Assembly: GCF_017352155.2 (NCBI RefSeq)
Contig: NZ_CP071462.1
Location: forward strand, 1,116,001-1,180,000
Direction of reading: 5' to 3'
Origin: Haloterrigena alkaliphila
GTDB lineage: Archaea > Halobacteriota > Halobacteria > Halobacteriales > Natrialbaceae
Length of the DNA: 64,000 nucleotides
Made by a program: the position numbers and the translations under genes. Positions 35,330 to 62,542 of the stretch are shown one piece after another. The number at the start of each line of letters is the position of its first letter. The first letter of the stretch is position 1. The notes below the pieces were generated by a model. That model had not been told where the DNA came from. It worked only from the letters and a program-made list of their open reading frames with translations, and made no database searches.

Positions 35330-35347
35330 AAGCCAAGGGCCGGATTT
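35330..35347 (+). other. attL of the integrated element (tRNA-Cys 3'-end copy)
   Basis: AAGCCAAGGGCCGGATTT is identical to 62525-62542, where it forms the 3' end of tRNA-Cys (minus strand). Here it is an isolated fragment 41 nt before the integrase gene. Reading leftward from it, the flank CTTTTCTGAGC looks like the original T-rich end of the tRNA-Cys transcript. Confidence 0.88.
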
Positions 35348-35387
35348 CAGGTGGAAGCATACAAGCCAAGACGTTCTGGGGAGTAAT

Positions 35388-36716
35388 ATGGCTAACGCCG
35401 ATCCACGCGAAGAAGTCGACACCTTGCGGAAGCGGTTAGAGGGGAGTGGCGAGGATCGACGGTACGTTCAATTCGACGTAGACAGGCACCACCTGTTGAA
35501 AATGTCCGACAACATTCGTCTCACTCCGAGCCAAATTGGGGAGCACAGGCACCTGAAGCTTCTACGGCATTGCACACGAATGGCGCAAGTTTCGACGCCG
35601 CCTTCTATCGAAGATTTCGAGGACAACGACGAAGCCGTTGATGCTGGTGTCGAAAACAACGATGATGTAGATAGGCTCCTTGAGGAGCATGGTCTCCTCG
35701 GTCTCGCCCTTGAGTATCGTGCCGCCGCCGAAGCAATTGTGAGATGGATCCACAACGAGTATACGAACGAGCATACCAACCAGGATTACCGGACCGCGTT
35801 ACGCTCATTTGGCCGCTATCGGCTCAAGAGAGATGAGCCGCCAGAAAGTCTCCACTGGATCCCGACGGGAACGAGTAACGATTTCAACCCAGTTCCTTCG
35901 GAGCGTGATCTACTGCGGTTCGAGGAAGACATCCAGCCGATGTTGGATGCATGTCGGAACCCTCGTGACCGTGCCCTGATCGCAGTTCAATTCGAGGCGG
36001 GTCTGCGAGGGGGAGAACTTTGGAACCTCCGAATCGGCGATATCTTTGATTCGGATCACTCGGTCGGGATCCATTCGGATGGCAAGAGAGGTGAGAAACC
36101 GGTGCATCTCATTATGTCGGTTCCGTATCTCCAAAAATGGCTAAACGAACACCCCACTGGTGACGACGATCAAGCTTACCTGTGGACGAAACTTGATAGC
36201 CCAGGACGTCCGTCTCGGAGTACCTGGTACGGTTATTTCAAGGGGCCGGCAAAGCGGGCTGGCGTAACAAAGGACGTACACCCGACGAATCTCCGGAAAT
36301 CAAACACACGGTGGCTGATCAAGCTTGGTATGTCGACAGCTCGGATTGAGGATCGACAAGGGCGAAAACGTGGTAGCGAACATACCGCCCGCTACTTAGC
36401 TCGGTTCGGCGCCGAATCGAATGAGCGAGCCTACGCCAAGCTTCACGGTATTGAGGTTGATGAGGAGGAGGACGAGAACGAGGTCGGTCCTGTGGAATGT
36501 CCGCGGTGTCACAGAGAGACACCGCGCCACGAGGACTTTTGTGTCTGGTGCCATCACGCCCTTTCCTTCGAGGCGACTGAAGACGTTGATAATCTCCAAG
36601 ACGACATGTTCACAGCTGCTGGAGAAGCCGACGAAAGCCAGTTCAATGATCTGGAGGAAGCCCGCCGGCTCATCAGCGAGAACCCAGCGTTACGTCGTGT
36701 GTTATTGAACGAGTAG
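35388..36716 (+). CDS. Tyrosine-type site-specific integrase with C-terminal zinc ribbon
   Basis: The 442-aa protein has a helical N-terminal core-binding region (about residues 60-185) and a tyrosine recombinase catalytic domain. Likely catalytic residues are Arg in FEAGLRGGELWNLRI, the HxxR box in HPTNLRKSNTRWL, and Tyr in GSEHTARYLARFG. A zinc ribbon (CPRCHRETPRHEDFCVWC, about residues 370-390) and an acidic tail follow, as in other haloarchaeal integrases. It lies 41 nt inside attL and should integrate and excise the element at tRNA-Cys. ATG 35388 is chosen for the TAATATGG context and family length. Confidence 0.92.
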   Translation: MANADPREEVDTLRKRLEGSGEDRRYVQFDVDRHHLLKMSDNIRLTPSQIGEHRHLKLLRHCTRMAQVSTPPSIEDFEDNDEAVDAGVENNDDVDRLLEEHGLLGLALEYRAAAEAIVRWIHNEYTNEHTNQDYRTALRSFGRYRLKRDEPPESLHWIPTGTSNDFNPVPSERDLLRFEEDIQPMLDACRNPRDRALIAVQFEAGLRGGELWNLRIGDIFDSDHSVGIHSDGKRGEKPVHLIMSVPYLQKWLNEHPTGDDDQAYLWTKLDSPGRPSRSTWYGYFKGPAKRAGVTKDVHPTNLRKSNTRWLIKLGMSTARIEDRQGRKRGSEHTARYLARFGAESNERAYAKLHGIEVDEEEDENEVGPVECPRCHRETPRHEDFCVWCHHALSFEATEDVDNLQDDMFTAAGEADESQFNDLEEARRLISENPALRRVLLNE

Positions 36717-36717
36717 T

Positions 36718-36885
36718 TCAGTCCCCGTTTTCGCTTTCCTCAAGATGGTTCAGCGCGTTCTCGAAGTAGGGAGCTATCGGTAGGTCCGAGTCCGCGAGCC
36801 GTTCGAATAGCTCGCGGTGTTCGTCGATGATCTTGTTGACATCGGTGGGCTCCGTGGACCCGTTGGTGGCCGGTCCATTATTCAT
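36718..36885 (-). CDS. Small acidic protein, 55 aa, convergent with the integrase
   Basis: The frame from ATG 36885 to TGA 36718-36720 encodes a 55-aa acidic, helical protein (PTDVNKIIDEHRELFERL, LPIAPYFENALNHLEE). Its stop lies 1 nt from the integrase stop on the other strand. Such small genes often accompany haloarchaeal integrases, so an excisionase-like or regulatory role is possible but unproven. Confidence 0.65.
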   Translation of the reverse strand: MNNGPATNGSTEPTDVNKIIDEHRELFERLADSDLPIAPYFENALNHLEESENGD

Positions 36886-37769
36886 CCCGATCACCCTTAG
36901 GTGTCCTATTCAGGTGGTGCGATAAGCCAGGCCATCGTCGCAAGGAAGGCAAAGGATGGGTAACTGCTACTAGAGCTCTTCGAGCTGACCAACAAGTCAA
37001 CCCACTCCACGCCTTACGTTGCGGAGTATCCGTGCACTTGATTCGTCGTTGATCCGACCCTGTCGGATGACTCAGCCAGTATCGACACCTTGTCCGAAAA
37101 CTGCACCACGACGAACAGATGTTGGGGGCTCCTTGACGGTGGCTACACGGCTGCGGTAACTCCTCTATCCAGGATCCAGCCAACTGGAAACATCGGTGGC
37201 GGAAACGTAGATATCTCCATCCGTGAGGCAGGAGATCGTGGCAACGTACCCTACAGAAACACCGATTTGTCTGTTTCCGTAATTGGCTACCAGCGTGTCG
37301 GGATTGGTGTAGTTCGTATTGGTGAGTGTGTGTCGTGAATCGTGTTAGATCCATTCTTCGTCCAAGTTTGAACGGACTGCATGATCCCGAGTCGAAAACC
37401 GACGAATCTCTGCACAACAGTTTAGACTTTTGCGACGAAATATGGCACTACGGGCCTCGGTATCACTGGTCCGTGTACTTGTCTCGAGCACCTGCGGCCA
37501 TCCCGGCCAAAGGAACTGGGTCGCAGGTGCCGAGCAGTCCAATTTCATTGCTCCGTCATTGTGTCCTGTCTTCGTTGATCTCCCCAACTCGTATGTTCTA
37601 TTTCCCTCTGAGCTGCGTACTCGATCAGAGGTGGGATCCAGTATCGGGCACACCGATGTTAGTCGGGATCCTTTCTCGAGCATCGTTGTCTCGTACGGTA
37701 CAGTAGATACAACGAGCGGAGCCGTTAAATGCCTACGTGTTAAGTAGTAGTTCGTCGAAAACCTACGAA
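36886..37769. other. 884-nt region of apparent gene debris
   Basis: No intact gene is convincing. On the minus strand 37165-37344 encodes about 60 protein-like residues (NYTNPDTLVANYGNRQIGVSVGY is part of it) with no start and stops at both ends, so it may be a fragment of a lost gene. The longer open frames on both strands here are Cys/Arg/His-rich and unlike haloarchaeal proteins. Confidence 0.4.
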
Positions 37770-38492
37770 ATGGACGGGCCAATTGTACCAGATGACCTGC
37801 TTGAGCGCGCCGAGGGACACGAGACTCTATCGGACCTTCTTGAGAATGAAACTAAGATAATCGACATTCTCGAGGAGCACGCGGGAGATGATGGCGGATT
37901 TACAAAGATAGAGATACACTCTGACGGGGTTGAACTGAAGAAGGAACCGCGAGGAATTCTTTCGCATCCGGATCGAGAATATCTCTGGGGGTTCCGTGAG
38001 TACCAACATCCACAATCCGAATCAAATCGGAAGAAGGAAATCCGTGAGCGGGTTGGATATGGTCTCAAGGACTTCATCTATCTCGATCAGTTCCTCGACG
38101 ACGAAGAGCGAGAAAGGATCTTCCAAGAAGAGTTCGACGAGGAAGAACTCCAAGACAGCATAACGTCATTAGTGGCATTTGTCTATCTTGGCCTCCAACA
38201 AGACGAAGCTTGGTTTGAAGAGCTCTTAGAACGTGGAATCCTTCACGGTGCAAATAGTGAGACGCAGGAACGGGGGGCTGGCGAAGCGACTGACGTGACT
38301 GTCTCAATCGATATCGAATACAACCCCGACGTCGAAAGCCTCACCCAACGGCTGAAAGATGGTGATCATCTTACCCCGGCCGAAATCGGTGTTTTGGCAC
38401 GGGCTGGGGAGCTCGACCCGAGCGACTTAGAGAGGCTAGAAGACACCAAAAGCCCGTCCACCCCGATGACTTTTCAGGTCGAGAGAGATTAG
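37770..38492 (+). CDS. Acidic protein, 240 aa, function unknown
   Basis: I do not recognise a family. The protein is acidic and helical, with EDELEEH-like charged stretches (DDEERERIFQEEFDEEELQDSITSL near residue 110). The C-terminal part (VTVSIDIEYNPDVESLTQRLKDGDHLTPAEIGVLARAG) resembles a small helical module of the kind seen in regulators. The ATG at 37770 gives the most haloarchaeal-like start. It is surrounded by debris on both sides and belongs to the element cargo. Confidence 0.65.
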   Translation: MDGPIVPDDLLERAEGHETLSDLLENETKIIDILEEHAGDDGGFTKIEIHSDGVELKKEPRGILSHPDREYLWGFREYQHPQSESNRKKEIRERVGYGLKDFIYLDQFLDDEERERIFQEEFDEEELQDSITSLVAFVYLGLQQDEAWFEELLERGILHGANSETQERGAGEATDVTVSIDIEYNPDVESLTQRLKDGDHLTPAEIGVLARAGELDPSDLERLEDTKSPSTPMTFQVERD

Positions 38493-38828: not shown

Positions 38829-39261
38829 TCCAAGAATACTATACGTGGAATGTCCGGGTGAGTTCCCAAGAATCGGGCGCTGATAGCTCGACCCAGTGAT
38901 CCGGGACGATGTTACCCGCTCCCGGGGCGATCGCGGCAGGGTTTCCACCCGGCTAACTCCGTCTATACGGGTTCTGTCCGGGTACATTAGCCCTCGAAAC
39001 CCAGCGACGGCTCTAACCTCCCAATATTCGCCGAACAGGCCGACGCGGATCATTTTCAGCCGCCCTCTGAGGAAGCTACTAAGATGGTGTACCTCCGCGC
39101 CAGAATTGTCAGAATCACAGTATAGATATTATCTTTGTAAATACCCAATCAGGAGACGGCACAGGGGTGATCTCTCCAAGGGTTTGTTAAAGCCAATTGA
39201 CTAATGATCTTCCCTCCCGTATAGAGAGTGGATGTCCCATCCCACCTCACAGAAATTTGGT

Positions 39262-39558
39262 ATGAGCGAAGAAAAAGAAACTTTCGCGAGAGCGATCGAG
39301 TACTTATTATTCAAGAGGCAGGGCTCGTACGAGCCAGAAGCTGAAACTCGAGACGACAGGCCGGAGCTGACGGTCCTCGGGTCACCAACGTACAACCTGG
39401 AACAAAACGAGATGTATCTCGACTCGGTTGGTCCTGATGAGGCGCCGTACGTCCTGGTGTTCGATTTTGACGAGCAGACGGTGGGCCACGCTTACGGCAC
39501 CTATGAAGATCAACAGTTCCCAGGCACCGTAACGAATATCCATTTCCCCGAGGACTGA
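39262..39558 (+). CDS. Small acidic protein, 98 aa, function unknown
   Basis: The protein has a helical N-terminus (EEKETFARAIEYLLFKRQGSY) and a beta-rich C-terminal part (YVLVFDFDEQTVGHAYGTY). No family is recognised. ATG 39262 is preferred because the preceding in-frame ten residues are not acidic. It is the last gene before CRISPR array 1, ending 53 nt from the most degenerate repeat. Confidence 0.6.
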   Translation: MSEEKETFARAIEYLLFKRQGSYEPEAETRDDRPELTVLGSPTYNLEQNEMYLDSVGPDEAPYVLVFDFDEQTVGHAYGTYEDQQFPGTVTNIHFPED

Positions 39559-39611: not shown

Positions 39612-42600
39612 TATACCTGTTGAACACCCTGTTTCTCGTCGCCTCGACGCGACCTCGAGCACGTGGGACTCGGCGACCGACACGTTTCAATTCGATGCTG
39701 GGTTTCTCCGTTGCCTCGACCGAACATTTCCGAAACACCGCGTTCGACCGCAATGGTGTTACAATCCCGCGCTGGGTTTCTACGTCGCCTCGACCCGTCT
39801 TCCCGGAGTCCTTGACCATCGTGACGGTGAGTTTCAATCCCGTGCTGGGTTTCTATGGCGTCTCGACACAACGGAGACGATCCTCGAACTGCTCCCGATG
39901 TTGTTTCAATCCCGGACTGGGTTTATAGGTCATCTCGACTGTTTGAGCCGCCGGCTCAGCAGATGTTGGACATTGTGTTTCAGTCCTGTGGGGGTTTCTA
40001 CGTCGTCTCGACCGTCGCGATCGGCCAGCTACTCGGAGGGCTGTGACCATGTTTCAATCCTGTGCTGGGTTTCTACGTCGTCTCGACTTTCGGACGCGAC
40101 CGGGTGGGTGATCCACCGGATGTTTCAATCCCGTGGTGGGTTTCTACGCCGTCTGGACGCGATCTCGTCGGCTGTGGAAAGGACAAGGTGGCGGAGTTTC
40201 AATCCCGAGCTGGGTTTCTACGCCATCTCGACCGGATGCCGTTCGAGGGAAACCAGAACTGTCGTTCGGTGTTTCAATCCCGTGGGGGGTTTCTACGCCG
40301 TCTCGACGCGGCGGTATCCGATCGATCTCGAGTACCCGATGGTGTTTCAATCCCGTGCTGGGTTTCTACGCCGTCTCGACACGCATTTGACCTGGGCGGC
40401 ATCCTCGAGATGGAGTTTCAATCCTGTTCTGGGTTTCTACATCGTCTCGAGCGAAATCATGCATCGGGACGTCGACTGGCTCACACGGTTTCAATCCCGT
40501 ACTGGGTTTCTACGCCGTCTCGACCGACGACGATGGAGCCGTAGTGCCCGAGGCGGAAGTTTCAATCCCGTGGTGGGTTTCTACGCCGTCTCGACCGACG
40601 ACGATGGAGCCGTAGTGCCCGAGGCGGAAGTTTCAATCCCGTGCTGGGTTTCTACGCCGTCTCGACCCCGTGTCGAAATTTTTCACGACCGCCGAATCCA
40701 TCGGGTTTCAATCCCGTGGTGGGTTTCTCCGTCGTCTCGACAGCACAATGAGACGAGACGACATTAGAGGGATTCCCCGTTTCAATCCCATTGGGGGTTT
40801 CTCCCTCGCTTCGACACGACGTCAAGTTCTTCGACGACCTCGTCAACTTCGAGTTTCAATCCCGTGGTGGGTTTCTCCCTCGCTTCGACTGGACCCAGTT
40901 GTTGACCGTCTCGACCGACTGCATGTTTCAATCCCGTGGTGAGTTTCTCCCTCGCTTCGACCGGTCGACCGCTGGGATATGCCGGTCTACCGCTTGTTTC
41001 AATCCCGTGCTGGGTTTCTACGTCGTCTCGAGGTCGAGATGACGATAATACACACGCGAGACAGAACGCGTTTCAATCCCGTACTGGGTTTCTACGCCGT
41101 CTCGACATCACGAACCAGATCCCCGCGGGCGTAATCGCTTCCTCGTTTCAATCCCGTGGTGGGTTTCTCTGTCGCCTCGACACGCCTGAACCCGCTCAGC
41201 CGCCCTGAGAGACCTCTCTTGGTTTCAGTCCCGTGCTGGGTTTCTCCGTCGCCTCGACCGGGCGCGGCGCGGTGGGAGCGTAAGCATAATTGCGTTTCAA
41301 TCCTGTGCGGGTTTCTCCGTCGTCTCGACTCCACGTTCCGGGCGCCGCTGCGCGGCGCCGGGCTTTGTTTCAATCGCGAGATGGGTTTTCTCCATCGTCT
41401 CGACCTCATCGAGACCGGCGTCGGACTGGCGACGTTCATGTTTCAACCCCGTGGCGGGTTTCTCTGTCGTCTCGACTCAGCGCCTCGCGACCCTCTTGGG
41501 GGTCACACTGTTTCAATCCCGGGGGGTTTCTACGTCGCCTCGACAGATGATCGAGATGTGGTCGAACACGACGATCGACGTTTCAATCCCGAGCTGGGTT
41601 TCTACGTCGTCTCGACGCTTCCACCGCGTTCGCGTAGTTGGCGATCGCCTCGTTTCAATCCCGTGCTGGGTTTCTACGTCGCCTCGACTCTCGGAAAGCC
41701 GACCAGTGGCGTCGATACCATGAGTTTCAATCCCGTGGTGGGTTTCTCCGTCGTCTCGACTCTATCCACATAATTGGGATTAGTCCGGGACCTCGTTTCA
41801 ATCTCGTGGTGGGATTCTACGTCGCCTCGATGTACCGAGGCCGGGGCCGAGAAGCGCACGTCCGAGGTTTCAATCCCGTGGTGGGTTTCTACGCCGTCTC
41901 GACCCGTCGACGCCGACCGTCTGGTCGTACGTGTGCAGGTCGTTTTAATCCCGTGGTGGGTTTCTATGCCGTCTCGACACCCGCTTCGCGTGAGCGGTCG
42001 GACGCGATTGTGATGTTTCAATCCGGTGGGAGGTTTCTACGTCGTCTCGACCAATGAGCACGGTGTGCCCGGACTCGATGTCGTTGTTTCAATCCCGTGC
42101 TGGGTTTCTACGTCGCCTCGACCCGTAGTGGATAGCGACGACCGGAGCGCCGAGTACCATGTTTCAATCCCGTGCTGGGTTTCTACGTCGCCTCGACCGT
42201 CGAGAACTGCGATTGCCCGTGCACCTGCGGGTTTCAATCCCGTGCTGGGTTTCTACGTCGTCTCGACGGCCCACGCCGTCCGCGGCGTGTTCGAACACGA
42301 CCATGTTTCAATCCCGTGGTGGGTTTCTCCGTCGCCTCGACGGTGCGGGGCGTATTTGTTCGCCACCGGACACCAGTTTCAATCCCGTGGTGGGTTTCTC
42401 CGTCGCCTCGACGGATCACGAGCGCGTTGGACTGGCGTACGCTGAGTTTCAATCCCGTGGTGGGTTTCTACGCCGTCTCGACCCGACGACGCGGTCCCGT
42501 ATCTGTTCGTGTTCGACGATTTTCAATCCCGTACTGGGTTTCTACGTCGCCTCGACGAACGCACTCTCACGCGAGCGGGTTGTGATGGACCGTTTCAATC

Positions 42601-42991
42601 CCGTACTGGGTTTCTACGTCGCCTTGACAACCACTATTACGCCGGGGCGGGTAAAACGAACCAATTTCAATCCCGTGGCGAGTTTCTACGTCGTCCCGAC
42701 TGAGCCAACATCCCAACCAGTCAAGAACCATGTTGTTTTAATCCCGTGGTGGGTTTCTCCGTCGCCTCGACGTCTCCGGCCACGTTGTACATCACACCGC
42801 GGGCCATGTTTCAATCCCGTGGTGGGTTTCTCCGTCGCCTCGACGTCTCCGGCCACGTTGTACATCACACCGCGGGCCATGTTTCAATCCCGTGCTGGGT
42901 TTCTCCCTCGCTTCGACGTGTCGTCGTGATCGGCGTCACCGTCACCGTCGTACAGTTTCAATCCCGTGCTGGGTTTCTCCCTCGCTTCGAC
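39612..42991 (-). CRISPR. CRISPR array 1, about 47 repeats, transcribed leftward
   Basis: The repeats are 37 nt. On the minus strand they begin GTCGAGACGACGTAGAAA and end GGGATTGAAAC, giving the 8-nt ATTGAAAC handle. Spacers are 34-38 nt. I count 47 repeats including degenerate ones at 39612, 39684 and 39758, so the trailer is on the left and the leader on the right. Two spacers are tandemly duplicated (40525-40558 with 40596-40629; 42772-42807 with 42845-42880). Five repeats carry a CTCCCTCGCTTCGAC variant end. Confidence 0.97.
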
Positions 42992-43778: not shown

Positions 43779-43912
43779 TGCACCGAAATGCAAACGACAA
43801 CCAACGATACCACTCTACCAAAAACATCTCAATACTGCGAAAAGAATCAAGTGTAATGCGTTCCCAAGTAGCCGTGTGAAACGACAGAGACTATCCGAAT
43901 CGGGTGCAGAAT

Positions 43913-44761
43913 ATGCGCCACGTTGACTTAACACTCGAGCCGCGGGATAGTTTCCCTGTCCCAACCTCAAACGGCTATCAGGTGTACGGAGCGCTGCTAT
44001 CTTCGCTGGACGAATCCTCGTCAACAGTGAGCCAACGGCTCCACGATTCGTCTATTGGCAGTCTCCACAACAGTGGGCTACTGGGCTCTTTTTCGGGAAG
44101 TGATCGCCGCCACCACAAGCAGGTCGACAAGGATGAACATTACGACCTGCGTCTCGGGGTGACTGACGCTGATGATCAAGAAGTATTCGAGGCACTCGCA
44201 GAAGCGTTCGTCTTTGGTGGCGACTCGTTGGAGTTAGCCGACGGAGAGTTCGTCGTTGCGGACTTCGCTAGTACGAACGCGACGCATGAGGAACTACTAA
44301 CCGACGCAGCGGCTGTCGTCGACGACCTTCCGCCGGATTTCGAGATCGAGATGCGATTTCGAACTCCGACCTGCATCCGGGAAGCAGACGAGATTACCGC
44401 TATGTTCCCCGCGAGAGGGACCGTTTTCCGCTCGCTCCTTCGGAAGTGGAACAAGACCGTGCCAGAGGAGCAGGCAAACGAACTCGAGCTCGGACTCGTA
44501 CGCGAGGACTTCGAGGCAAACCTGATCGAGAAGCCTGACGAGCACGCCTACGACACAGACGTGATAATGGTCAACCGCGGCGAGGATGGGAAACCGATTC
44601 TCCGGCAGGGATTCCTCGGCTCGTGTACGTATAAGTTCAAAGACGCGAGCGAGGCAGTTCGGACAGCGACGACGGCATTGGCGTCGTTTGCGGAGTTCGG
44701 CGGCGTTGGGAGTTCCGTTGCGCGTGGCTGTGGCTATACGGAGGTGAAAATCAACTCATGA
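43913..44761 (+). CDS. cas6: CRISPR endoribonuclease Cas6
   Basis: Cas6 cuts the repeat transcript to leave the 8-nt ATTGAAAC handle. The 282-aa protein has two ferredoxin-like halves and the C-terminal Gly-rich loop typical of the family (EFGGVGSSVARGCGYTEV, about residues 262-279), preceded by GFLGSCTYKF. ATG 43913 is chosen over an in-frame GTG 9 nt earlier. The stop overlaps the cas10d start by 4 nt, so cas6 heads the operon. Confidence 0.9.
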   Translation: MRHVDLTLEPRDSFPVPTSNGYQVYGALLSSLDESSSTVSQRLHDSSIGSLHNSGLLGSFSGSDRRHHKQVDKDEHYDLRLGVTDADDQEVFEALAEAFVFGGDSLELADGEFVVADFASTNATHEELLTDAAAVVDDLPPDFEIEMRFRTPTCIREADEITAMFPARGTVFRSLLRKWNKTVPEEQANELELGLVREDFEANLIEKPDEHAYDTDVIMVNRGEDGKPILRQGFLGSCTYKFKDASEAVRTATTALASFAEFGGVGSSVARGCGYTEVKINS

Positions 44762-52721: not shown

Positions 52722-54633
52722 GTCGAGACGACGTAGAAACCCAGCACGGGATTGAAACACCATCTCCTGCTGGCGCCCCGTACTGGAACGCTGCTGTCGA
52801 GACGACGTAGAAACCCAGCACGGGATTGAAACTGGCAGACATGGCTATGGGATCCCGGCGCGCTGTGAGTCGAGACGACGTAGAAACCCAGCACGGGATT
52901 GAAACTCGTCCAACTGTCGGGGTCGATCGACGGCGCCGGCACGTCGAGACGACGGAGAAACCCAGCACGGGATTGAAACGACAACGAGAAGTGGCCGAAA
53001 GCAGATCTCCTCGACGTCGAGACGACGTAGAAACCCAGCACGGGATTGAAACGTGAGGCTCAGCACGACGATCACGATGACGAGCGTCGTCGAGACGACG
53101 GAGAAACCCAGCACGGGATTGAAACACCGTGGCCGTCCACGTAGTACGCCGTCCGCTTGGTCGAGACGACGGAGAAACCCAGCACGGGATTGAAACTTCC
53201 GACTCGGTCACTTCGGGTCGTTGGCCGTCGAGTCGAGACGACGTAGAAACCCAGCACGGGATTGAAACTACACACACGGTCGCGTGACGCGGTAGAACGT
53301 CGTGTCGAGACGACGTAGACACCCAGCACGGGATTGAAACTTCATCACCGGCTTGTCCGCTGGACCACGGATCCTCTGTCGAGACGACGTAGAAACCCAG
53401 CACGGGATTGAAACCCCTCGGTGGCGACGCGCATGTTCATGCTACGCTGCAGTCGAGACGACGTAGAAACCCACCACGGGATTGAAACAGATCGGCTGCC
53501 TGTCTGAGATTTGGCGTGAGTTGAGTCGAGACGACGTAGAAACCCACCACGGGATTGAAACAACCGGAAACCCGGGTCGGCTTGCAGACCCCCCCAGTCG
53601 AGACGACGGAGAAACCCACCACGGGATTGAAACAACCGGAAACCCGGGTCGGCTTGCAGACCCCCCCAGTCGAGACGACGGAGAAACCCACCACGGGATT
53701 GAAACCCCCAGGACTTGCCAGTACCGGATTGGCCGATAAGTCGAGACGACGTAGAAACCCACCACGGGATTGAAACTATCTCGGCTACGGGCCGATCGTG
53801 TCGCTCGTGGGAGGTCGAGACGACGTAGAAATCCAGCACGGGATTGAAACATGGCCGAGATCGAGGGGCCGGTGCTCGCCGTCCTGTCGAGACGACGTAG
53901 AAACCCACCACGGGATTGAAACAGGTACAGTCCGGCGAGGGGGATTATCGGGCTGTCCGTCGAGACGACGGAGAAACCCACCACGGGATTGAAACGTGAT
54001 ATTCTCGCCGCCGATATCGGTATGCGAAAACGGTCGAGGCGACAGAGAAACCCACCACGGGATTGAAACGAGAAGGTCACCGACCCACAGACCGCCAAAG
54101 AGATGGGGTCGAGACGGCGTAGAAACCCAGTACGGGATTGAAACTGCCGGTCGACCAGCCTCGAGAGCCGCTTACGAGCGCGTCGAGACAACGTAGAAAC
54201 CCAGCGCGGGATTGAAATGTACAGTTCGCGCGGCCACCGTTCTGTTCCACGTAGGTCGAGACGACGTAGAAACCCAGCACGGGATTGAAACGACACCCGA
54301 GCCGACCTCTCGTATCTCGGCGAGGTCGAGACGACGGAGAAACCCACCACGGGATTGAAACGGAATTCAGTCGGGGATACGCTCGGGGCGTTCGTCGGTC
54401 GAGACGACGTAGAAAAACACTCAGGTCAGCCTGAATCGTCGGCGAATAGTTGATGTCAGGACGATGTAGAAACCCAGTACGGGATTGAAACACCTAGGGG
54501 GTGACACTCAACGAGGATCTGGGGATCGTCGAGGCGATGTAGAAACCTACCACGGGATTGAAACACGACACAATGGTAGTGCAGGTTCCACACGAGGTCA
54601 AGGCGACGTAGAAAACAAGCGCGGAGTTAAAAC
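52722..54633 (+). CRISPR. CRISPR array 2, about 27 repeats, transcribed rightward
   Basis: The repeats are 37 nt, begin GTCGAGACGACGTAGAAA and end GGGATTGAAAC, in the same family as array 1. I count 27 including degenerate ones at 54398 (truncated), 54455, 54528 and 54597, which marks the right end as trailer. The first ten repeats carry CCCAGCACGG, while most later ones carry CCCACCACGG. One spacer is duplicated in tandem (53562-53596 and 53634-53668). Spacers are about 35-37 nt. Confidence 0.97.
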
Positions 54634-54709: not shown

Positions 54710-55522
54710 TCATTCGTCAATGTTCAGTTCGTCACGTACAATATTGCGGATCCGCTCGTCAAGATCGCGGTTGTCCTTGTCGATATCGAGCGTGGGCAGC
54801 GGTCCAAAGTTGTCAATCGCCGCCTCTACACGCTCATCATCGTGCTCACCGTACAGGTACATCTGCCGACGATCATCGTTATTGTAGAGGTCTGTGAGCG
54901 TTGAGCGGGGAATGCCAGAGTCCGCGGCAACCTGTCGCTTACTCTCGCCGCTATCGACTCTCTCGAGGGCGTGACGGACGTTTAGGAACTCTTCTGGGTC
55001 GACGTGGAGCCGACTATCGTCACCGACGTAGAAGCCGCGTGGTGGCTTCGACGTCCATTTTCCCTCCCGCTGCGCGGCACGGATACCCGAATTGATCCGC
55101 TCCAGTTTCTGTTGGTGCTCGATCTTCGCGAGATCGCCCATGATGTTCGCGATCATCGTGTAGACCGTCTGCTGGAGCGCCGGATCGTCGACTCGAATCG
55201 ACAATCCAACGTCGAGGCTCTCGATGCCAGTCTCGTTCTCGAGGGCGTGCTGGATGAACTCGTGAATCTCGGTCGGTCCCAGACGGGAAAGACGGCTAAT
55301 CTCGTGGACGACGACCACGTCGTACTCGTCGGCAGCTATCGCGTCCCAGAGGCGCTGGTATTCGTCCCCACCGATCTTATCGGCGCCGGAAACAATGTCA
55401 GCGTACTCGTCGGTATCGTCGATATCGGGATAGTTTGAATCGAGATGGTCGCGGCATTCGTGCAACTGACGCTCTAGATCTTGGTCGGCCGTCGAAACGC
55501 GGGCATAGATGGCGGCTTTCAC
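54710..55522 (-). CDS. Serine recombinase (resolvase/invertase family)
   Basis: The 270-aa protein has a resolvase N-terminal catalytic domain with Ser10 in YARVSTADQDLERQ and the Arg motif in EISRLSRLGPTEI near residue 80. A helical middle follows (AKIEHQQKLERINSGIRAAQREGKW) and then a C-terminal helix-turn-helix (SKRQVAADSGIPRSTLTDLYNN, about residues 195-216). It may resolve or invert DNA within the element. It lies directly beyond the trailer of array 2, with no obvious recombination site recognised. Confidence 0.92.
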   Translation of the reverse strand: MKAAIYARVSTADQDLERQLHECRDHLDSNYPDIDDTDEYADIVSGADKIGGDEYQRLWDAIAADEYDVVVVHEISRLSRLGPTEIHEFIQHALENETGIESLDVGLSIRVDDPALQQTVYTMIANIMGDLAKIEHQQKLERINSGIRAAQREGKWTSKPPRGFYVGDDSRLHVDPEEFLNVRHALERVDSGESKRQVAADSGIPRSTLTDLYNNDDRRQMYLYGEHDDERVEAAIDNFGPLPTLDIDKDNRDLDERIRNIVRDELNIDE

Positions 55523-55729: not shown

Positions 55730-56785
55730 ATGGCTACAGACTATCCAGCAGATTGGGATCGACGTCGGAAGCAGGTCTATCAACGAGATGGATATAGCTG
55801 CCAAAACTGTGGTGCATCAGGTGGACCAGACGGGAATACGGAGTTACATGCGCACCATGTTGTTCCCAAAAGTAAAGGAGGATCCCACAAAACAACGAAT
55901 CTAGTTACTGTCTGTAAGAAGTGTCATGAAGCAATTCATGGAAACGGGACTGCGCCTTCGTTCAAGGCCCAACTGTCTACTGAGCAGGAAGCTTATGCGA
56001 CGATCCAACAAGCTACGGTCCCTTTCAATCAACTCGAGCAACGCTTTGAACTGATTTCAAAGGGAGAGTATAGTGATTCAAGCTCAGAAGATGCTATAAT
56101 GGAGACGATCTATTTGGCATTTGAGGCAAAGAAGCAAGTTGCTCAGGTCGCCTCTTCTGAGGTCTTAGAGAGTCTATCAGAAGGTGAGAGCAGTGTGATC
56201 AGAAGATGGATATCTACTGCTCAGGAAATGATAGGGCTGTATATTGAGATAGTTGGACTACTAACGGATGGGACTGAAGAACCACAATGTACTGAGTGTG
56301 GTGAGATAATCGGGCACGATGATGATTTCTGTCGAGGTTGCGGAGCTAAACTCTCAGATGAGCAGTTCAAGGATAGCAAATCTGCCGCTATCGATGAAGA
56401 GAAGTTAGATAATAAATTCGAGAGGTTCGATAAATATAGATACGAATTTAACGAGGTCGGGTTAGAAGTTACCGCAGCAATGGCGTATAACGCGGGTAGG
56501 AATATCACGGCCCCGTGGGATCATTGCCCTAATTGTGGGAAAGGGAGAACCGTCCTAGAGAACGATAAAGGGGAGGTACTTTGCCTATTCTGCAACGCAA
56601 GGTGGGAGAAGCGCCGGAAAAAATGGGCAATGCACCGTGGTGAATTGGAAGGGGAGAAAAAATCGAAAGGAGAGTGGGATGAAATCTGCCGTGAGAGCGC
56701 AGCGCAATTCGAAAATTTGGATTGGGAGCAGAAGGCGGAACTCGTAGACACAAATATTGAGGAGTTACAACGAGACTTTACCTAA
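55730..56785 (+). CDS. HNH endonuclease with additional zinc ribbons
   Basis: The 351-aa protein begins with a zinc-stabilised HNH nuclease (CQNCGASGG, LHAHHVVPKSKGGSH, NLVTVCKKCHEAIHG, residues about 23-65). A helical middle with a four-Cys ribbon follows (CTECGEII, FCRGCGAKL near residue 185) and then a second ribbon (CPNCGKGRT, CLFCNARW near residue 265). It is clearly more AT-rich than its surroundings and less acidic, suggesting recent transfer. It could be a homing, restriction or defence nuclease. Confidence 0.85.
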   Translation: MATDYPADWDRRRKQVYQRDGYSCQNCGASGGPDGNTELHAHHVVPKSKGGSHKTTNLVTVCKKCHEAIHGNGTAPSFKAQLSTEQEAYATIQQATVPFNQLEQRFELISKGEYSDSSSEDAIMETIYLAFEAKKQVAQVASSEVLESLSEGESSVIRRWISTAQEMIGLYIEIVGLLTDGTEEPQCTECGEIIGHDDDFCRGCGAKLSDEQFKDSKSAAIDEEKLDNKFERFDKYRYEFNEVGLEVTAAMAYNAGRNITAPWDHCPNCGKGRTVLENDKGEVLCLFCNARWEKRRKKWAMHRGELEGEKKSKGEWDEICRESAAQFENLDWEQKAELVDTNIEELQRDFT

Positions 56786-57298: not shown

Positions 57299-57300
57299 AT

Positions 57301-57637
57301 GCCAATTGACATTGAATCATACCGTCAGATAAACACCCTCACCAATGAGGAACAAATCGTCGCATTTCTATTTGAGCATCGAGATAAAGCGTATAAAGCA
57401 GCAGAGATTGCAGAGAGAACAGGCATCAGCAAAGGGTGTACGTCTAAACGTCTAACAGTCCTTCGGAAGATGGGTATTGTTTCCAACAAGACCCTGTATT
57501 GGACAATTGACGATCCAATTAAGGCCTTAGACTATCTTCAAGATAAAGAGATAGTAGAAATTACGTCCCAAGCTGCCCTTGGAGATTTTCAAACATCAGA
57601 TCCCAGAACAAACGAACAAACGATGACGAACGGTTAG
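57301..57637 (+). CDS. Winged-helix (MarR-like) regulator
   Basis: The 112-aa protein starts MPIDIESYRQINTLTNEEQ at about 57299 and has a helix-turn-helix (EHRDKAYKAAEIAERTGISKGCTSKRLTVLRKMGIV, about residues 25-60) followed by a beta wing and an acidic tail. Its start and layout resemble the chromosomal regulator at 18805. The region is AT-rich. It may regulate the primase-like gene, which is convergent with it and ends 78 nt away. Confidence 0.8.
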
Positions 57638-57714: not shown

Positions 57715-60700
57715 CTACCCGCTCGATGCTATGTTGGGCGGCTTGCCAAGGATGGCCGACGAACAGATCACGGGTGTCGGCGGCGCAATTGCACCAGCGG
57801 AAACACCTCCCTCCCGCGTCACCAGGAAATTCCACGTATAGTTAACACACATACGCGGGTTTTCCGCCTCTTCATCGATCTCAAGGTCGACCTCCGACCA
57901 ATCGGCCTCACCTGTACCAGGGTCCTCGGTAAGTGTGTAAGCGTGCGCCGTTCCAGGGTTGGCCTCGTCGCGCTTGAGATAGCCAAGGTTGGTCAGGTTC
58001 GCAAGGACATTTCGAATCGTGCGCCGGGTATAGTCGTCCTCCATACGCTCGTAAACCTCGCCAGAAGAGAACTGGCCATGCCCCAACTTGCGGGCAGTCT
58101 TAGCGACGGCGAGTGTCGCTTTCGAGTGGGCACTGACAACCGAAGCTTCGGCAACGACCGGTAGATCGTCGCGAAGAGCCGAAGTGTGGGTAAAGACGAC
58201 CGTCGGCTCATCGGATCGGCCAAAGCGAAGGGCGGCCTGCATCGTCTGATCTTTGAGCATATGATCGCGGTAGTCGTTCGCGATCTCACCACCGTAGTCG
58301 AGACTATTCCCGTGGCCGGTACGCTCAACTTCCTCGCCGGCGAGAGCTGCCCACTTCTCGACGACCTGATCGCCGAAGTGCTGCACGCCGAGGATCGCAC
58401 CAACGTTCCGCTCGCCGAGGGCATCGCTGCCGGTCACGTTGAGATAGTGATCGACGACATTGGCCCGATTCTCGAGGTCATCGCCGAGATACTCGCGTGC
58501 TTTCTTGGTAGTGATCACGGCGGGTTCTTCGTCATACTTCTCGCAAGCAGCATCGAGGACGGCAAGCGGCCCGCCGAAGTTGTTGCCGTCCAAGTCTCCG
58601 CCGTAGGTATTGATGTTCCTGCTCGTCTGGACAACCCTCGTGTTCATCGTCTGCTCGAGGAACCGACGGCGATCACCCGCAGTGTCGTGGACGTCCCGAC
58701 GCTCGGCGTCGCGGCCGATCGCTAGTCGCCAGAGTTTCGGTCGAGCGGTCGCGTCGAGACCGATCAGTGGGCACTTCTCGCCGCCTCGCGCGACGAACTC
58801 CGGCGGGTTGTGGACGATAGCGCCGTGGTGGTTCCGGTCGACGATGACCGTAGCACCGGCGTGCGTGACGCGCTTTAGGTTCGTACCGGCCTCGCGGTCG
58901 AGGGAATACTCCATAGTAGTAATATCGCTCCCGTCGCCGATCGCGCCGGCGAGGAGTAGCCAAGCACGCGGATGGGCATACCCGTCCTCGGAAAAGACAG
59001 CGAGCTCGCGACACCCCTCACTCCCACCCTCAAGAGCGGTTGCTGCCGCCTTAACGAGATCGCTGGCGTCGCGGCATTCGCGGACAGCCTCTGTGGCCGC
59101 CTGGACCAGTTTCTCAAGGTCACCGGCGATAGGGAGCTCAGCGTCGAGTTCGTCGGGAGCGAGGTCGATGTCGATCGCCTCGTAGCCGGACAGGTCGTTG
59201 CCCGCTTGGCCTTCAGTGAACGACGCCTCGGTCGCGCTCTCGAGTGCACTGGTCAGGCGATCGGTGATGCAATCCTCAACGTCGTTGAGCACGCCGTACA
59301 CCTCGATGGGATCGGCACCGAGACGCTCAGCTGCCTGGCGCTCGCCATAGACGGCATTTGTTGCCTCCTCGGCGCGGTCCTTCGCCGTCTCAACGGCGTC
59401 ACGAGCGTTTCCGAGTGTATCGACGGGAAGCTCGGTCGGAAGGTCGGTCAGGTCAAGGAGCGCTGTCTCGAGGTCTTGCAGGACTTTCACTCCTCCGCAA
59501 AGACCGCGCATATCCTCAAGAACATCCTCAGCGGCGTCGATCGCATCAATTGCACCGGTGGCAGCTCGGAGACGAGCTACGGTTGCATGAATTTGTGGGA
59601 GATCGCTTGCCTCGCCGTCGAGCCACGCCGATACCCAAGAATCATCGGCGAGGTTCGCGTCCAAGAGACTCTCGACGTCACCAACGTCATCGGTAAGGCA
59701 GCTGGCGAGCCAGGTCGCGTGATCGCGCCAGGCCTCGCCGTAACCGTTGGCGTATTCGAGGCCGGGGAACTCGTCGATGACCACGGCGCGGGGGCGCGTT
59801 ATCTGATCGCCGTTCTCGTTTCTGCCGTACCAGGTCCGGGCACTTTCGACGTGTGCGTGGCCGTGGCCGCCAATGAGAAGATCGATCGGCGCGTCGGGAT
59901 CCGTCAGCCGTTCCCAGGCGCGGCTATACTCGCAGTCTCCGCTCTCCTGACAGGGGAGCTCCTCGCCGAACAGCGCGGTGGCATGGATATGTATCTCGGC
60001 GGGAGTGTGGCCCAGTGCTCGTGCGGTTTGAATGACGAGCCGCCAAGCGTCGCCGTACTCGCCGTTCGCAGTGGGGCAGCTCCCACGTTCGAGTTCGGCA
60101 CCGTCATCGGCCGCCTCCTCGTCACTCTTGGGGTCGAGAGGTGCTTCGACGACGCTGAGGAGCGCGTCGCGGTCCTTGAGAAGTGTCTTGTCCTGCTCGC
60201 GAACGGCACAGACGGCCTCAACAAGCGCCGCGTCGTCGACGCGGTTCTTGGCCAACACGGGGAGATGGGCAAAGCTCACGCCAGTCTCGCGAGCGTACTC
60301 GACGGCTTGCTCTTTGAGCTCGTTGCGCCCGGCCAAATAGGTCGTCGGGTTCTCCTCGGCGGCTTTGATCGCCGAGTAGGTTTTTCCGAGTGCCGGGAGT
60401 GTGGTAACGAGCTGGGCACGATCGCGAACTGTCCCGGCGTCCAACAGGAGTTCCTCGACGCGATCACGTGCCTCTTCGAGCGTCTCAATACCGATTTCAG
60501 CGCTCGCATCGTCGAGAACGCGAGCGGCCGGGGGGAGAACTGCGACGTGCTCAAGGAGCGTGGCACACCACTTGGGCAGTGGAGCGCCGTAGTCCTCCCG
60601 AGCCAAGGTATAGGCGCGCTTGAACGCCTCCCCCCGGAGCCGTTCACCCTCGTCGTCGAGTAGGTCGTTCTCGAGAGCGATGAACTCGAGCGGAGAGAAG

Positions 60701-62406
60701 GATACCTCGTGCTCGACACACCAAAAGCCGCGTCCGTAGCCGGCAAGAACGCGCTCACCGCTATCGCTTTCTTCCCAGACAGGATTGATCTTCGCGGTCG
60801 CCGTGCCGATCGGGTTCTCGACGGTGACGGTCGACTTAGCCCGCTCGAGAACGAGCTCGGGGTCGAGTTGACTGACGGCACCGAAGACGTAGCTCGTGTT
60901 ATCGGTGAGCGCCGTCTCGTCGAGATACTTCGGGAGTGGAGCGCCGTACTTCTCCCGGGCCAGCTCGTAGCCGCGAGTGTACTCCTGATAGGTGGCGCCC
61001 TCCTCTGGCGAGGTTACCATCTCCTCGGTGGTCGCGACAGCGAGGGCTACGTCGCCAGCATCTTCGAGCGTCTCGACAGGCTTCTCGAGGTCGGAGGGTT
61101 GGACAGCCCGCGCGGCCCGCACGGCGTCGTCGGGATCAACGATGACCGCCTGATCGAGAAGGTCGCGCGGGTCGTCCTTCTCTTCGACGTATTTGGGGAT
61201 CGGCGCGCCCGCCTCACGAGCCTTGGTGACGGTTTCCCTGAACTCCGCGCCTTCAAGCGGATGCCACGGTTTCGAGATGATCCCTTGCTCGGCAGCGAAC
61301 AGGCTCAATAGACTGAATGCGTGGCCCGTCTTATGGTCGTGAAAGACAGGTTCGCCCGGCGGACGGTGGAGGCTGTCGCCCCCGCTACTCGGTCGGTAGC
61401 TCGACGGGTCCCACTTCTCCCAGCCCGTCGCGTCTGTTCCGACCTGTCGGGTACAGAGTGGGAGGTCGCTCGGCCGTAGTTGCTCGATCGCGTAGAAGAC
61501 GTCTCGGACATCGTCAGTCGTTTCGTCACCGGTCGCACTGGGTTCATAGTCGTCGAGCTCCGGCCGTTCGCGGTCCGTATCGTACCCTTCGATATCGTGC
61601 TTATCCGCTTCGGGAACGCGCTCCTCGAGCAGTGCCTTTAGCTCCTCTTCATCCCACGGGTTGACCTCGAGTGGCGTTCCGGGAACATGCTCGCCAGTTA
61701 CGACACAGACACGCTTGCCGTCGTAGATTTCGATCTCCGGGACGTCCTCGTTTGTGCCCCAGGGCTCGTCGTCGATGGCGAACTTCGCTTGCTTGTACCC
61801 GGTCGGGAGTTTGCCTACGTAGAGCGCGTGAACGCCGCTCCCGGACGTCGAAACGTCGGCGTATGTGATACCCAACCGCTTGAGGACGGCGACAAATTGG
61901 GGATGTACCTCGCCACTCTTGGGACATCGGACGTCGTCGCCGTCGATGAACGCGAACGGATCTGGGTCGTCGGTATACGGGTCATCTTCCCGTTCGAGGA
62001 TCGCTATATGGCCATCTACCCGTGGGTCGGTCTCTACCCATTCGTCGACGGTCGCTTTGTTCGCCCAGTTCTCCGCGTTGCTCCACTTCCGAGAGTTGTT
62101 CCACGGCGCCCAAGGCATCTTGTCCTGACGGGCCATCCAGAAGTCGCGCTTTTCCCAAGCGGGTGGCCAGACGTTGGTCTCGGGAGCAGTGAACTCAGCA
62201 CCGTCCCACCCTTCACCCTGGCCGCCTGACTCGTCTGTCCCTGCCTCTGGGATTTGAACACCTACTTCGGTCTCCCGGCTGCCGCTTTTGGCGTCGGTGT
62301 CCGCGGGAAGGTGCTGGGCGCAAAGGCTCCCGGGACTAGTCGGGTCAACAGCCTCGCGATCGCAATGCGGGAGCGTACACTGCCGGGCGGGCGGCACCAC
62401 CGTCAT
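57715..62406 (-). CDS. Giant primase-helicase-like replication protein
   Basis: The 1563-aa protein has an N-terminal Cys/His zinc site (CTLPHCDREA, SLCAQH) and an archaeo-eukaryotic primase-type domain with FIDGDDV near residue 155, STSGSGVHALYV near 188 and IEIYDGKRVCVVTG near 230. A P-loop LPALGKTYSAIKA lies near 670 and a Walker B-like VIDEFPG near 878, and a winged helix (TRRTIRNVLANLTNLGYL) near 1455. This is the layout of primase-helicases of plasmids and integrated elements, so it probably starts replication of the excised form. It lies just inside attR. Confidence 0.82.
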   Translation of the reverse strand: MTVVPPARQCTLPHCDREAVDPTSPGSLCAQHLPADTDAKSGSRETEVGVQIPEAGTDESGGQGEGWDGAEFTAPETNVWPPAWEKRDFWMARQDKMPWAPWNNSRKWSNAENWANKATVDEWVETDPRVDGHIAILEREDDPYTDDPDPFAFIDGDDVRCPKSGEVHPQFVAVLKRLGITYADVSTSGSGVHALYVGKLPTGYKQAKFAIDDEPWGTNEDVPEIEIYDGKRVCVVTGEHVPGTPLEVNPWDEEELKALLEERVPEADKHDIEGYDTDRERPELDDYEPSATGDETTDDVRDVFYAIEQLRPSDLPLCTRQVGTDATGWEKWDPSSYRPSSGGDSLHRPPGEPVFHDHKTGHAFSLLSLFAAEQGIISKPWHPLEGAEFRETVTKAREAGAPIPKYVEEKDDPRDLLDQAVIVDPDDAVRAARAVQPSDLEKPVETLEDAGDVALAVATTEEMVTSPEEGATYQEYTRGYELAREKYGAPLPKYLDETALTDNTSYVFGAVSQLDPELVLERAKSTVTVENPIGTATAKINPVWEESDSGERVLAGYGRGFWCVEHEVSFSPLEFIALENDLLDDEGERLRGEAFKRAYTLAREDYGAPLPKWCATLLEHVAVLPPAARVLDDASAEIGIETLEEARDRVEELLLDAGTVRDRAQLVTTLPALGKTYSAIKAAEENPTTYLAGRNELKEQAVEYARETGVSFAHLPVLAKNRVDDAALVEAVCAVREQDKTLLKDRDALLSVVEAPLDPKSDEEAADDGAELERGSCPTANGEYGDAWRLVIQTARALGHTPAEIHIHATALFGEELPCQESGDCEYSRAWERLTDPDAPIDLLIGGHGHAHVESARTWYGRNENGDQITRPRAVVIDEFPGLEYANGYGEAWRDHATWLASCLTDDVGDVESLLDANLADDSWVSAWLDGEASDLPQIHATVARLRAATGAIDAIDAAEDVLEDMRGLCGGVKVLQDLETALLDLTDLPTELPVDTLGNARDAVETAKDRAEEATNAVYGERQAAERLGADPIEVYGVLNDVEDCITDRLTSALESATEASFTEGQAGNDLSGYEAIDIDLAPDELDAELPIAGDLEKLVQAATEAVRECRDASDLVKAAATALEGGSEGCRELAVFSEDGYAHPRAWLLLAGAIGDGSDITTMEYSLDREAGTNLKRVTHAGATVIVDRNHHGAIVHNPPEFVARGGEKCPLIGLDATARPKLWRLAIGRDAERRDVHDTAGDRRRFLEQTMNTRVVQTSRNINTYGGDLDGNNFGGPLAVLDAACEKYDEEPAVITTKKAREYLGDDLENRANVVDHYLNVTGSDALGERNVGAILGVQHFGDQVVEKWAALAGEEVERTGHGNSLDYGGEIANDYRDHMLKDQTMQAALRFGRSDEPTVVFTHTSALRDDLPVVAEASVVSAHSKATLAVAKTARKLGHGQFSSGEVYERMEDDYTRRTIRNVLANLTNLGYLKRDEANPGTAHAYTLTEDPGTGEADWSEVDLEIDEEAENPRMCVNYTWNFLVTREGGVSAGAIAPPTPVICSSAILGKPPNIASSG

Positions 62407-62480
62407 GTCGAGGACCTCCGCTGTGAAGTGAGTGGGGGTCGTAGAGAGACACTGTTACAACTACGAGGAAATGGTATCCC

Positions 62481-62505
62481 CCAACAACAGCGCGGTCGCT
62501 GTTGG
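62481..62505. repeat. Imperfect inverted repeat between primase-like gene and tRNA-Cys
   Basis: CCAACAACAGCG and CGCTGTTGG pair with one bulge. It may be an operator of the primase-like gene or a weak terminator for the rRNA operon. No T-run follows it in the leftward direction. Confidence 0.4.
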
Positions 62506-62524
62506 ATTGTTAGGAAATTGGTAT

Positions 62525-62542
62525 AAGCCAAGGGCCGGATTT
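62525..62542 (+). other. attR of the integrated element (inside tRNA-Cys)
   Basis: AAGCCAAGGGCCGGATTT is identical to attL at 35330-35347. Here it covers the 3' acceptor strand and part of the T arm of the intact tRNA-Cys, so integration kept the tRNA functional. Confidence 0.88.

What the first reader, a model, noticed from the sequence alone, without database searches (positions are those of the whole stretch)
35330..62542. A 27.2-kb integrated element bounded by tRNA-Cys att repeats carries a whole CRISPR-Cas system
Seen: an identical 18-bp sequence (AAGCCAAGGGCCGGATTT) at 35330-35347 and 62525-62542. The right copy is the 3' end of an intact tRNA-Cys and the left copy is an isolated fragment 41 nt from a tyrosine integrase. 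Between them lie the integrase, a resolvase, a primase-helicase-like protein, an HNH protein and a type I-D CRISPR-Cas locus with two arrays. Known: tyrosine integrases commonly use tRNA 3' ends and restore the tRNA. Inferred: the CRISPR system moves as cargo of an integrative element able to replicate after excision.
Basis: partly seen in the sequence, partly recalled or inferred. Interest (0 to 1): 0.92.

Follow-up and report, generated by a model that had tools for sequence, protein, structure and literature searches.

The report
CRISPR island built on virus ends
A salt-loving archaeon carries, in one tRNA gene, a 27-kb integrated element with the integrase and replication gene of a tailed-virus family but CRISPR immunity genes where the virus particle genes would be; the machinery for learning new targets is broken, so its immune memory looks frozen.

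Summary
The site is real. The 18-bp repeat is exact and occurs only at these two places in the genome at up to one mismatch; four of five congeners have a ~0.5-kb empty tRNA-Lys/tRNA-Cys site. Full-length relatives of the integrase bracket 40-59-kb tailed proviruses at the same tRNA-Cys in five other genera; four carry the same primase at the other end. The window element shares little but integrase and primase with them; CRISPR-Cas stands where virion genes would be.

It is not a 'whole' system: cas4 and cas1 are remnants, cas2 is frameshifted, and no Cas1 was found in the genome. Repeats are strongly diverged, 35 of 45 and 12 of 26 distinct, against 1-3 in fourteen arrays of relatives. A divergent I-D effector set sits inside a canonical frame. 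Four of 68 spacers have credible targets: one in the terminase of a tRNA-Cys provirus, three in 69-80-kb plasmids or contigs.

Excision, transfer and interference are untested. Adaptation-less provirus CRISPR is known for type I-B (PMC12596717): a new variant.

The parts
34845..34919 (+). tRNA-Lys(ttt), left flank marker of the site
   Evidence: next to tRNA-Cys in the empty sites of 4 congeners
35330..35347 (+). att repeat, left (isolated copy of the tRNA-Cys 3' end)
   Evidence: its 13-bp core AGCCAAGGGCCGG ends 45-57 nt before the integrase start in the 6 full-length relatives and 45 nt here
35357..35368 (+). possible degenerate arm-type site (GCATACAAGCCA; 9 of 12 to the family's CCTTACAATCCA at the same spacing)
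   Evidence: read by eye
35388..36716 (+). tyrosine integrase, 442 aa, C-terminal zinc ribbon
37737..38492 (+). unknown protein (239-251 aa)
   Evidence: no match in PADLOC, NCBIfam, Pfam, PHROGs
39232..39558 (+). unknown protein (108 aa)
   Evidence: no match in the same four libraries
39684..42991 (-). CRISPR array 1: 46 repeats of 37 nt (45 scored), 45 spacers, leader on the right; 35 distinct repeats among the 45 scored
43105..43827 (-). csa3 (CARF-HTH regulator)
   Evidence: CARF3 2.6e-82; 83% to G117
43904..44761 (+). cas6d
   Evidence: 2.7e-123; 91% to G117 over 265 aa
44758..48054 (+). cas10d with HD motif; divergent
   Evidence: 6e-52; at most 33% over partial stretches to 7 family relatives, 39% full length to G382
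48056..49051 (+). cas7d (csc2), divergent clade
49054..49770 (+). cas5d (csc1), divergent clade
49771..52002 (+). cas3d helicase, Walker A, DEFH and QRIGR motifs present
52004..52192 (+). cas4 remnant (C-terminal third, in-frame stops; 35-44% identity, the weakest of the three)
52207..52302 (+). cas1 remnant (first ~31 codons; most of the rest deleted)
   Evidence: 87% over 31 aa to G071 Cas1
52334..52605 (+). cas2, frameshifted into two parts
52722..54633 (+). CRISPR array 2: 26 repeats plus one truncated, 26 spacers, leader on the left; 12 distinct repeats of 26
54710..55522 (-). small serine recombinase (resolvase/invertase type)
55730..56785 (+). HNH nuclease with zinc ribbons
57299..57637 (+). 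winged-helix DNA-binding protein
57715..62406 (-). primase-helicase-like replication protein, 1563 aa; homologous to the protein at the same end of four tRNA-Cys proviruses
62502..62514 (+). arm-type site TTGGATTGTTAGG, as in the relatives but for one base
   Evidence: read by eye
62525..62542 (+). att repeat, right (3' end of tRNA-Cys plus 1 nt)
62526..62601 (-). tRNA-Cys(gca), intact

Best explanation
A tyrosine-integrase element integrated by recombination at the 3' end of tRNA-Cys (shown by the repeat and the empty sites). It was built on the two ends of a haloarchaeal tailed provirus, integrase at one end and primase at the other (shown), with virion genes gone and a type I-D CRISPR-Cas locus in their place (shown). 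The CRISPR locus is a chimera: a canonical csa3-cas6 and cas2-leader-array frame with a divergent cas10d-cas7-cas5-cas3 module swapped in (shown by tree conflict). Adaptation is dead: cas4 and cas1 reduced to stubs, cas2 frameshifted, no Cas1 found in the genome (shown). The intact effector genes probably still process crRNAs and cut matching DNA (inferred from intact motifs and from conservation of the CCC/GGG hairpin and 5' handle in otherwise drifting repeats). The fixed memory would then protect cell and element against relatives of its own virus family and against 69-80-kb plasmids (targets shown, interference inferred). Whether it still excises is open.
For: Unique exact repeat. Four of five congeners have an empty site of 502-577 bp from tRNA-Lys through tRNA-Cys; the window's flanks joined in a script give 562 bp against 27,757 bp occupied. 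Cas10d was not found in any of the 5 congeners. Full-length integrase relatives (67-71%) occur in 6 of the other 124 family genomes. In 5 of these 6 the core and tRNA-Cys bracket a 40-59-kb island beside tRNA-Lys; in the sixth (G057) no tRNA gene is found on the contig. The primase is at the tRNA-Cys end in 4 of these 5. Those 5 hold terminase and/or portal genes. Of the proteins predicted in the seven other islands by a simple ORF caller, only integrase and primase match the window island, apart from one weak 55-aa hit in the HNH gene. Adaptation remnants; Cas1 0 of 1 in the genome, while 7 of 7 other family genomes with Cas10d have Cas1 about 4.5 kb away. Trees of nine loci: Cas6 joins G117 (100/99); Cas7, Cas5 and Cas3 join G382 against the 7 others (100/100). 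Repeat divergence against 14 arrays of 7 relatives (repeated with each array's own repeat). Stem plus handle changed in 16 of 588 cells, loop in 38 of 210, array 1. Targets; reversed-spacer control 0 hits.
Against: No excision or transfer shown. The left arm site is degenerate. Only 4 of 68 unique spacers have a credible target, none of the 25 unique ones in array 2 (B02 and B05 reach 7-8 mismatches in 36, not counted). The terminase spacer A44 is the second-oldest in array 1, so it may predate the arrival on this element. Repeat variants recur at a few two-state sites (positions 7, 10, 13, 23), so recombination between repeats, not decay alone, may explain part of the divergence. The tree tool warned of long branches for Cas7, Cas5 and Cas3. 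The cas2 frameshift could be a sequencing error; the cas1 deletion could not easily be one. The divergent Cas7 was not found in viral contigs.
Confidence: 0.78

Rival explanations
1. A dead provirus remnant that later collected a CRISPR locus by recombination. Nothing in it is mobile any more, and the CRISPR locus is only parked between the old ends. This differs from the best explanation only in present mobility, which that leaves open, so the two odds overlap.
For: No virion genes recognised; left arm site degenerate; decayed cas4-cas1-cas2; primase GC 62% against 55-58% for integrase, cas genes and arrays, so parts may differ in age or source.
Against: Integrase (442 aa) and primase (1563 aa) are full open frames; the repeat is 18 bp, against 14-16 bp in the three relatives measured, though the left copy in L260 also reads to 18; ends and orientation are those of the proviruses.
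Confidence: 0.4
2. A virus satellite: integrase plus primase replicate it after excision, and a tailed helper of the same tRNA-Cys family packages it.
For: Integrase and primase without virion genes is the gene set of P4-like satellites (recalled); helper-type proviruses with the same ends exist.
Against: No packaging or helper-sensing gene recognised; spacer A44 matches the terminase of a provirus of that group; helper dependence not testable here.
Confidence: 0.12
3. An ancestral chromosomal CRISPR locus that lies by chance between two tRNA genes.
For: None found; I did not examine whether the I-D loci of relatives lie on mobile elements.
Against: Empty sites in 4 of 5 congeners and no Cas10d found in any of the 5; GC step; att repeat.
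Confidence: 0.02
4. Adaptive outsourcing: the arrays are still fed by a Cas1-Cas2 in trans.
For: Proposed for adaptation-less type I-B proviral systems (PMC12596717, abstract and passages); G382, with the same effector clade, has one Cas1 elsewhere.
Against: No Cas1 found in this genome or in the 5 congeners; diverged repeats even at the leader end of array 1.
Confidence: 0.05

Closest known systems
[quoted passage not shown]
   Same: Haloarchaeal, integrated element of viral origin, effector genes without a working cas1-cas2-cas4, spacers against other mobile elements
   Different: Here type I-D; no virion genes recognised in the element; cas4-cas1-cas2 still visible as remnants; divergent effector module; strongly diverged repeats; ends shared with tRNA-Cys proviruses
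[quoted passage not shown]
   Same: Haloarchaeal provirus with CRISPR-Cas and two arrays
   Different: Type I-B, identical 30-bp repeats, 74 and 61 spacers, head-tailed provirus (passages read)
Haloarchaeal tailed proviruses at tRNA-Cys (G018, G097, G074, G054, G055)
   Same: Integrase family, att core, tRNA site, orientation, and in four of five the primase at the far end
   Different: They carry terminase, portal or tail genes, and none of the window's Cas proteins has a match in the stretches read
Canonical haloarchaeal type I-D loci (G117, G071, G077 and four more family genomes)
   Same: csa3-cas6 in front, cas2-leader-array behind, two arrays, 37-nt repeat
   Different: They keep Cas1 (7 of 7) and near-identical repeats; their effector proteins are about 20-41% identical to those here
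G382 type I-D locus (L279)
   Same: Same divergent effector clade (Cas7 56%, Cas10d 37%); cas4 not found and only the last 52 residues of cas1 left
   Different: cas2 complete by alignment, a Cas1 elsewhere in the genome, no match to this integrase or primase on its contig

Membership tests
tRNA-targeted tyrosine-integrase element | direct repeat formed by the tRNA 3' end at both ends | tested here: met
tRNA-targeted tyrosine-integrase element | tyrosine integrase next to one att site | tested here: met
tRNA-targeted tyrosine-integrase element | empty site in close relatives | tested here: met
   4 of 5 congeners; the fifth (G001) holds another element at the same tRNA
tRNA-targeted tyrosine-integrase element | excision giving attP and attB | not testable with these tools
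   no reads; att arm patterns found nothing in viral contigs
Haloarchaeal tailed provirus | terminase, portal, capsid and tail genes | tested here: not met
   7 island proteins scanned against PHROGs: the only structural label is an HNH-domain hit to phrog_4581, named terminase small subunit (5e-9), over residues 8-72 of the HNH protein; provirus proteins other than integrase and primase do not match, one weak HNH hit apart
Haloarchaeal tailed provirus | integrase and primase at the two ends as in the family | tested here: met
Virus satellite | own integration and replication genes, no virion genes | tested here: met
Virus satellite | packaged by a helper | not testable with these tools
   none
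Type I-D CRISPR-Cas | Cas10d with HD domain, Csc1, Csc2, Cas3', Cas6 | tested here: met
   (HD by motif only)
Type I-D CRISPR-Cas | working cas4-cas1-cas2 | tested here: not met
   remnants only; no Cas1 found in genome
Adaptation-deficient proviral type I-B system | subtype I-B | tested here: not met
   I-D by PADLOC profiles
Adaptation-deficient proviral type I-B system | effector genes present, adaptation genes lost | tested here: met

The most novel reading that the evidence does not exclude
A CRISPR-armed, virion-less relative of a tailed virus family that competes for one tRNA-Cys site: it keeps the virus's own integrase and primase, has shed both virion genes and adaptation, and carries a fixed guide against the terminase of that virus group, so it would hold the shared site and destroy superinfecting cousins or a helper it does not need. 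The effector swap and the loss of cas1, seen also in G382, would mark a type I-D lineage specialised for frozen memory on mobile DNA.
Probability: 0.15. Interest if true: 0.85.

Novelty: new variant of a known kind. Interest (0 to 1): 0.62.

Why it matters
It shows a type I-D effector system without working adaptation on the ends of a tailed-virus family, at a site where relatives carry the full virus, and it gives one spacer that matches the packaging gene of such a virus. It makes two questions directly testable: whether mobile elements use fixed CRISPR memory to defend an integration site, and how long an array stays useful once acquisition is gone. Repeat drift that spares the hairpin and handle would be a read-out of selection for interference alone.

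Tried and rejected
Spacer targets in the phage collection: none for array 1; for array 2 only weak matches (E 0.01 to 0.6, 25 records), among them a 43-bp, 86% match to Halorubrum pleomorphic virus 9 near spacer B16 that I do not count. The whole-genome searches with the arrays scored at most two stretches a genome, their lists were cut, and most rows are matches between repeats, so the target census is incomplete; the A44 hit in G097 came from a local scan, not from them. Not counted as targets: A01 at 8 of 37, A07 at 9 of 37, A16 and A22 at 8 of 35, B02 and B05 at 7-8 of 36, and a 39-bp match to a Natronococcus plasmid that straddles a repeat. A15 also matches a 70.9-kb Natrinema pallidum plasmid.

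PAM: the 5' flanks of the 8 protospacers at up to 6 mismatches end in GCC, GCG, GCG, GCG, AAC, GCG, CCC and GCG; this is mixed with codon context and too few to name a PAM.

attP in viral contigs: two patterns, no match. IMG/VR 3300046060_000085 has integrase at one end and primase at the other, but it ends in or at genes, so it says nothing about a circle. The divergent Cas7 was not found in viral contigs. No closer home for the effector module than G382 was found among 391 genomes of the class, the own one included. The plasmids hit by A15, A19 and A06 may be pR1SE-like vesicle plasmids: PMC10818511 reports homologs of six pR1SE proteins in H. turkmenica and H. xanaduensis, but names neither plasmid in its main text, pR1SE itself is not held, and I leave this open.

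First form of the repeat control took relatives' repeats by likeness to the window's repeat, which could hide variants; repeated with each array's own repeat it gave again 1-3 distinct repeats in all 14 arrays.

Papers: PMC12596717 abstract, outline, passages and two sections; PMC11705971 passages; PMC10818511 passages and one section; all others search listings only. That I know of no type I-D system on a haloarchaeal provirus chassis in print rests on the searches, in an open-licence library only.
Full report
The observation. The 18-bp repeat is at the stated coordinates without mismatch and nowhere else in the genome at up to one mismatch. The right copy is the 3' end of tRNA-Cys, behind the 5S and 23S rRNA genes. 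The integrase ATG is at 35388; the longer frame in the ORF list runs upstream through the att copy. GC falls from 68.0% in the left flank to 56.6% in the island.

Empty site. All five congeners hold the left-flank gene and tRNA-Lys at 83-85% DNA identity. In four (G002-G005) tRNA-Cys follows after 352-427 bp; the interval from tRNA-Lys through tRNA-Cys is 502-577 bp, and the window's two flanks joined at the repeat give 562 bp. In the fifth, G001, a different element with a 45-49% integrase sits at the same site, with its own copy of the core, and carries TmtA-, DpdA/DpdJ- and MkoA-like genes. The window's genus includes Haloterrigena turkmenica DSM 5511: a contig of G005 has the length of its plasmid pHTUR05, and a spacer match lies at the same coordinates in both.

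The chassis. Among 125 family genomes, six besides the window's have a full-length relative of the integrase at 67-71%. I took the DNA around all six plus G001. In G018, G097, G074, G054 and G055 the core lies just before the integrase and again in tRNA-Cys, bracketing 40-59 kb; on the G057 contig no tRNA gene was found. The primase lies at the tRNA-Cys end in G018, G097, G074 and G055; none matched in G054. In an alignment with three of them its identity is 28-34% over the chain, best over the N-terminal 350-390 residues. Virion genes were found in these islands: terminase, portal, head and tape measure in G018, terminase and portal in G097 and G055, portal in G074, terminase in G054; I scanned ten proteins of G018 and nine of the other four in these two calls. 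The terminases fall into different PHROGs (phrog_2, phrog_38), so the two ends go with changing middles. From the window island only integrase and primase match their predicted proteins, apart from a weak 55-aa hit in the HNH gene. An IMG/VR contig of 39.4 kb has the integrase (76%) at one end and the primase at the other. Inverted arm-type sites flank the core in the relatives (left CCTTACAATCCA, right TGGATTGTAAGG); the window keeps the right one but for one base, and the left one in 9 of 12 bases at the same spacing (read by eye).

The CRISPR locus is not whole. Effector genes are complete and typed I-D; HD in Cas10d and the helicase motifs in Cas3 are present. Between cas3 and array 2 lie a weak cas4 C-terminal remnant with in-frame stops, the first ~31 codons of cas1, a deletion of most of the rest, and a frameshifted cas2. 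Cas1 was not found in this genome, nor in the five congeners. All seven other family genomes with Cas10d have Cas1 about 4.5 kb from it.

The effector module was exchanged. DNA of 42991-44733 (leader, csa3, cas6) is 78% identical to the I-D locus of G117, and 52301-52760 (cas2, leader, first repeat) 85%; the effector genes between do not align as DNA to any of the eight loci compared, one 54-bp stretch to G071 apart. Trees of nine loci agree: Cas6 puts the window with G117 (100/99), Cas7, Cas5 and Cas3 put it with G382 of another family, against the seven others (100/100) (the tool warns of long branches for Cas7, Cas5 and Cas3; Cas10d was not put in a tree). G382 was the only near match of Cas10d among 391 genomes of the class (39%; the next are 24-33% over parts). 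In its locus cas4 was not found and only the last 52 residues of cas1 are left, though cas2 is complete by alignment and there is a Cas1 elsewhere. Two losses with different breakpoints in one effector clade are suggestive, but two cases prove no rule.

Diverged repeats. Array 1 has 35 distinct repeats among 45 scored, array 2 12 among 26; fourteen arrays in seven relatives have 1-3 each, with the commonest repeat making up 67-100% (the same with each array's own repeat as query; several of these arrays run off the fetched stretch). In array 1 (42 repeats; 3 with indels dropped) the hairpin stem and 8-nt handle changed in 16 of 588 cells, the loop in 38 of 210; in array 2 8 of 364 against 14 of 130. 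Halves of the repeat do not differ as much (0.097 and 0.068 in array 1, 0.043 and 0.045 in array 2). I read this as loss of renewal with continued selection for crRNA processing. The cells are not independent, and recurrent two-state sites suggest shuffling among repeats too.

Targets. 71 spacers, 68 unique. Four have credible matches, all in array 1. A44 matches the terminase gene of the G097 tRNA-Cys provirus with 2 mismatches in 36 (terminase by PHROGs 5.5e-43), and 27 of 65 IMG/VR loci fetched with that terminase at up to 8 mismatches, 12 of them at up to 4; those loci were chosen by homology, so the number shows how conserved the site is. In the other islands read, A44 had no match within 9 mismatches. 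A19 matches G100 (Natrinema sp. DC36 plasmid), G004 and G049 (H. xanaduensis pHALXA03) with 1, 2 and 2 mismatches in 35; A15 matches G049, G100 and G103 with 4, 6 and 6 in 38, in a protein with relatives on 11 plasmid records; A06 matches pHTUR05 with 5 in 35. Reversed spacers gave no match. No self-target showed: the own-genome rows listed are the arrays themselves (4 of 5 rows seen, 5 of 5; at most two stretches scored). A44 is the second-oldest spacer of array 1, so it may have been acquired before the locus joined this element.

Reading. Shown: an integrated element on provirus ends, a chimeric I-D locus with dead adaptation, and fixed spacers against a relative of the chassis virus and against plasmids. 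Inferred: working interference. Open: excision, replication after excision, transfer. Proviral CRISPR-Cas without adaptation is known for type I-B in haloarchaea (PMC12596717); the type, the virion-less chassis, the visible decay, the effector exchange and the repeat pattern are what is new here.

Noticed in passing
window 34893-34921, 35015-35043, 35145-35173: The 3' end of tRNA-Lys is repeated downstream of the gene (97% and 72%); the first repeat is shared with the empty site of G003, so it is older than the island.
   Followed up: partly
L116, L115, L126 (G001 contig C22): The same tRNA-Cys site in a congener holds another integrase and large defence genes (TmtA-, DpdA/DpdJ-, MkoA-like).
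   Followed up: partly
G015, G071, G117; G399, G330, G402, G262: The C-terminal ~140 aa of Cas10d matches in a separate short frame, as if the small subunit were a gene of its own.
   Followed up: no
L106, L107 (G054): A tRNA-Cys provirus carries HmaC-like and BrxH/PbeA-like genes, so this chassis can carry other defence cargo.
   Followed up: no
G015:C1 552 kb and 613 kb: Two copies of a type I-D locus in one genome, about 61 kb apart.
   Followed up: no
window 40528-40670, 42734-42879, 53524-53667: Three spacer-repeat units are tandemly duplicated.
   Followed up: partly
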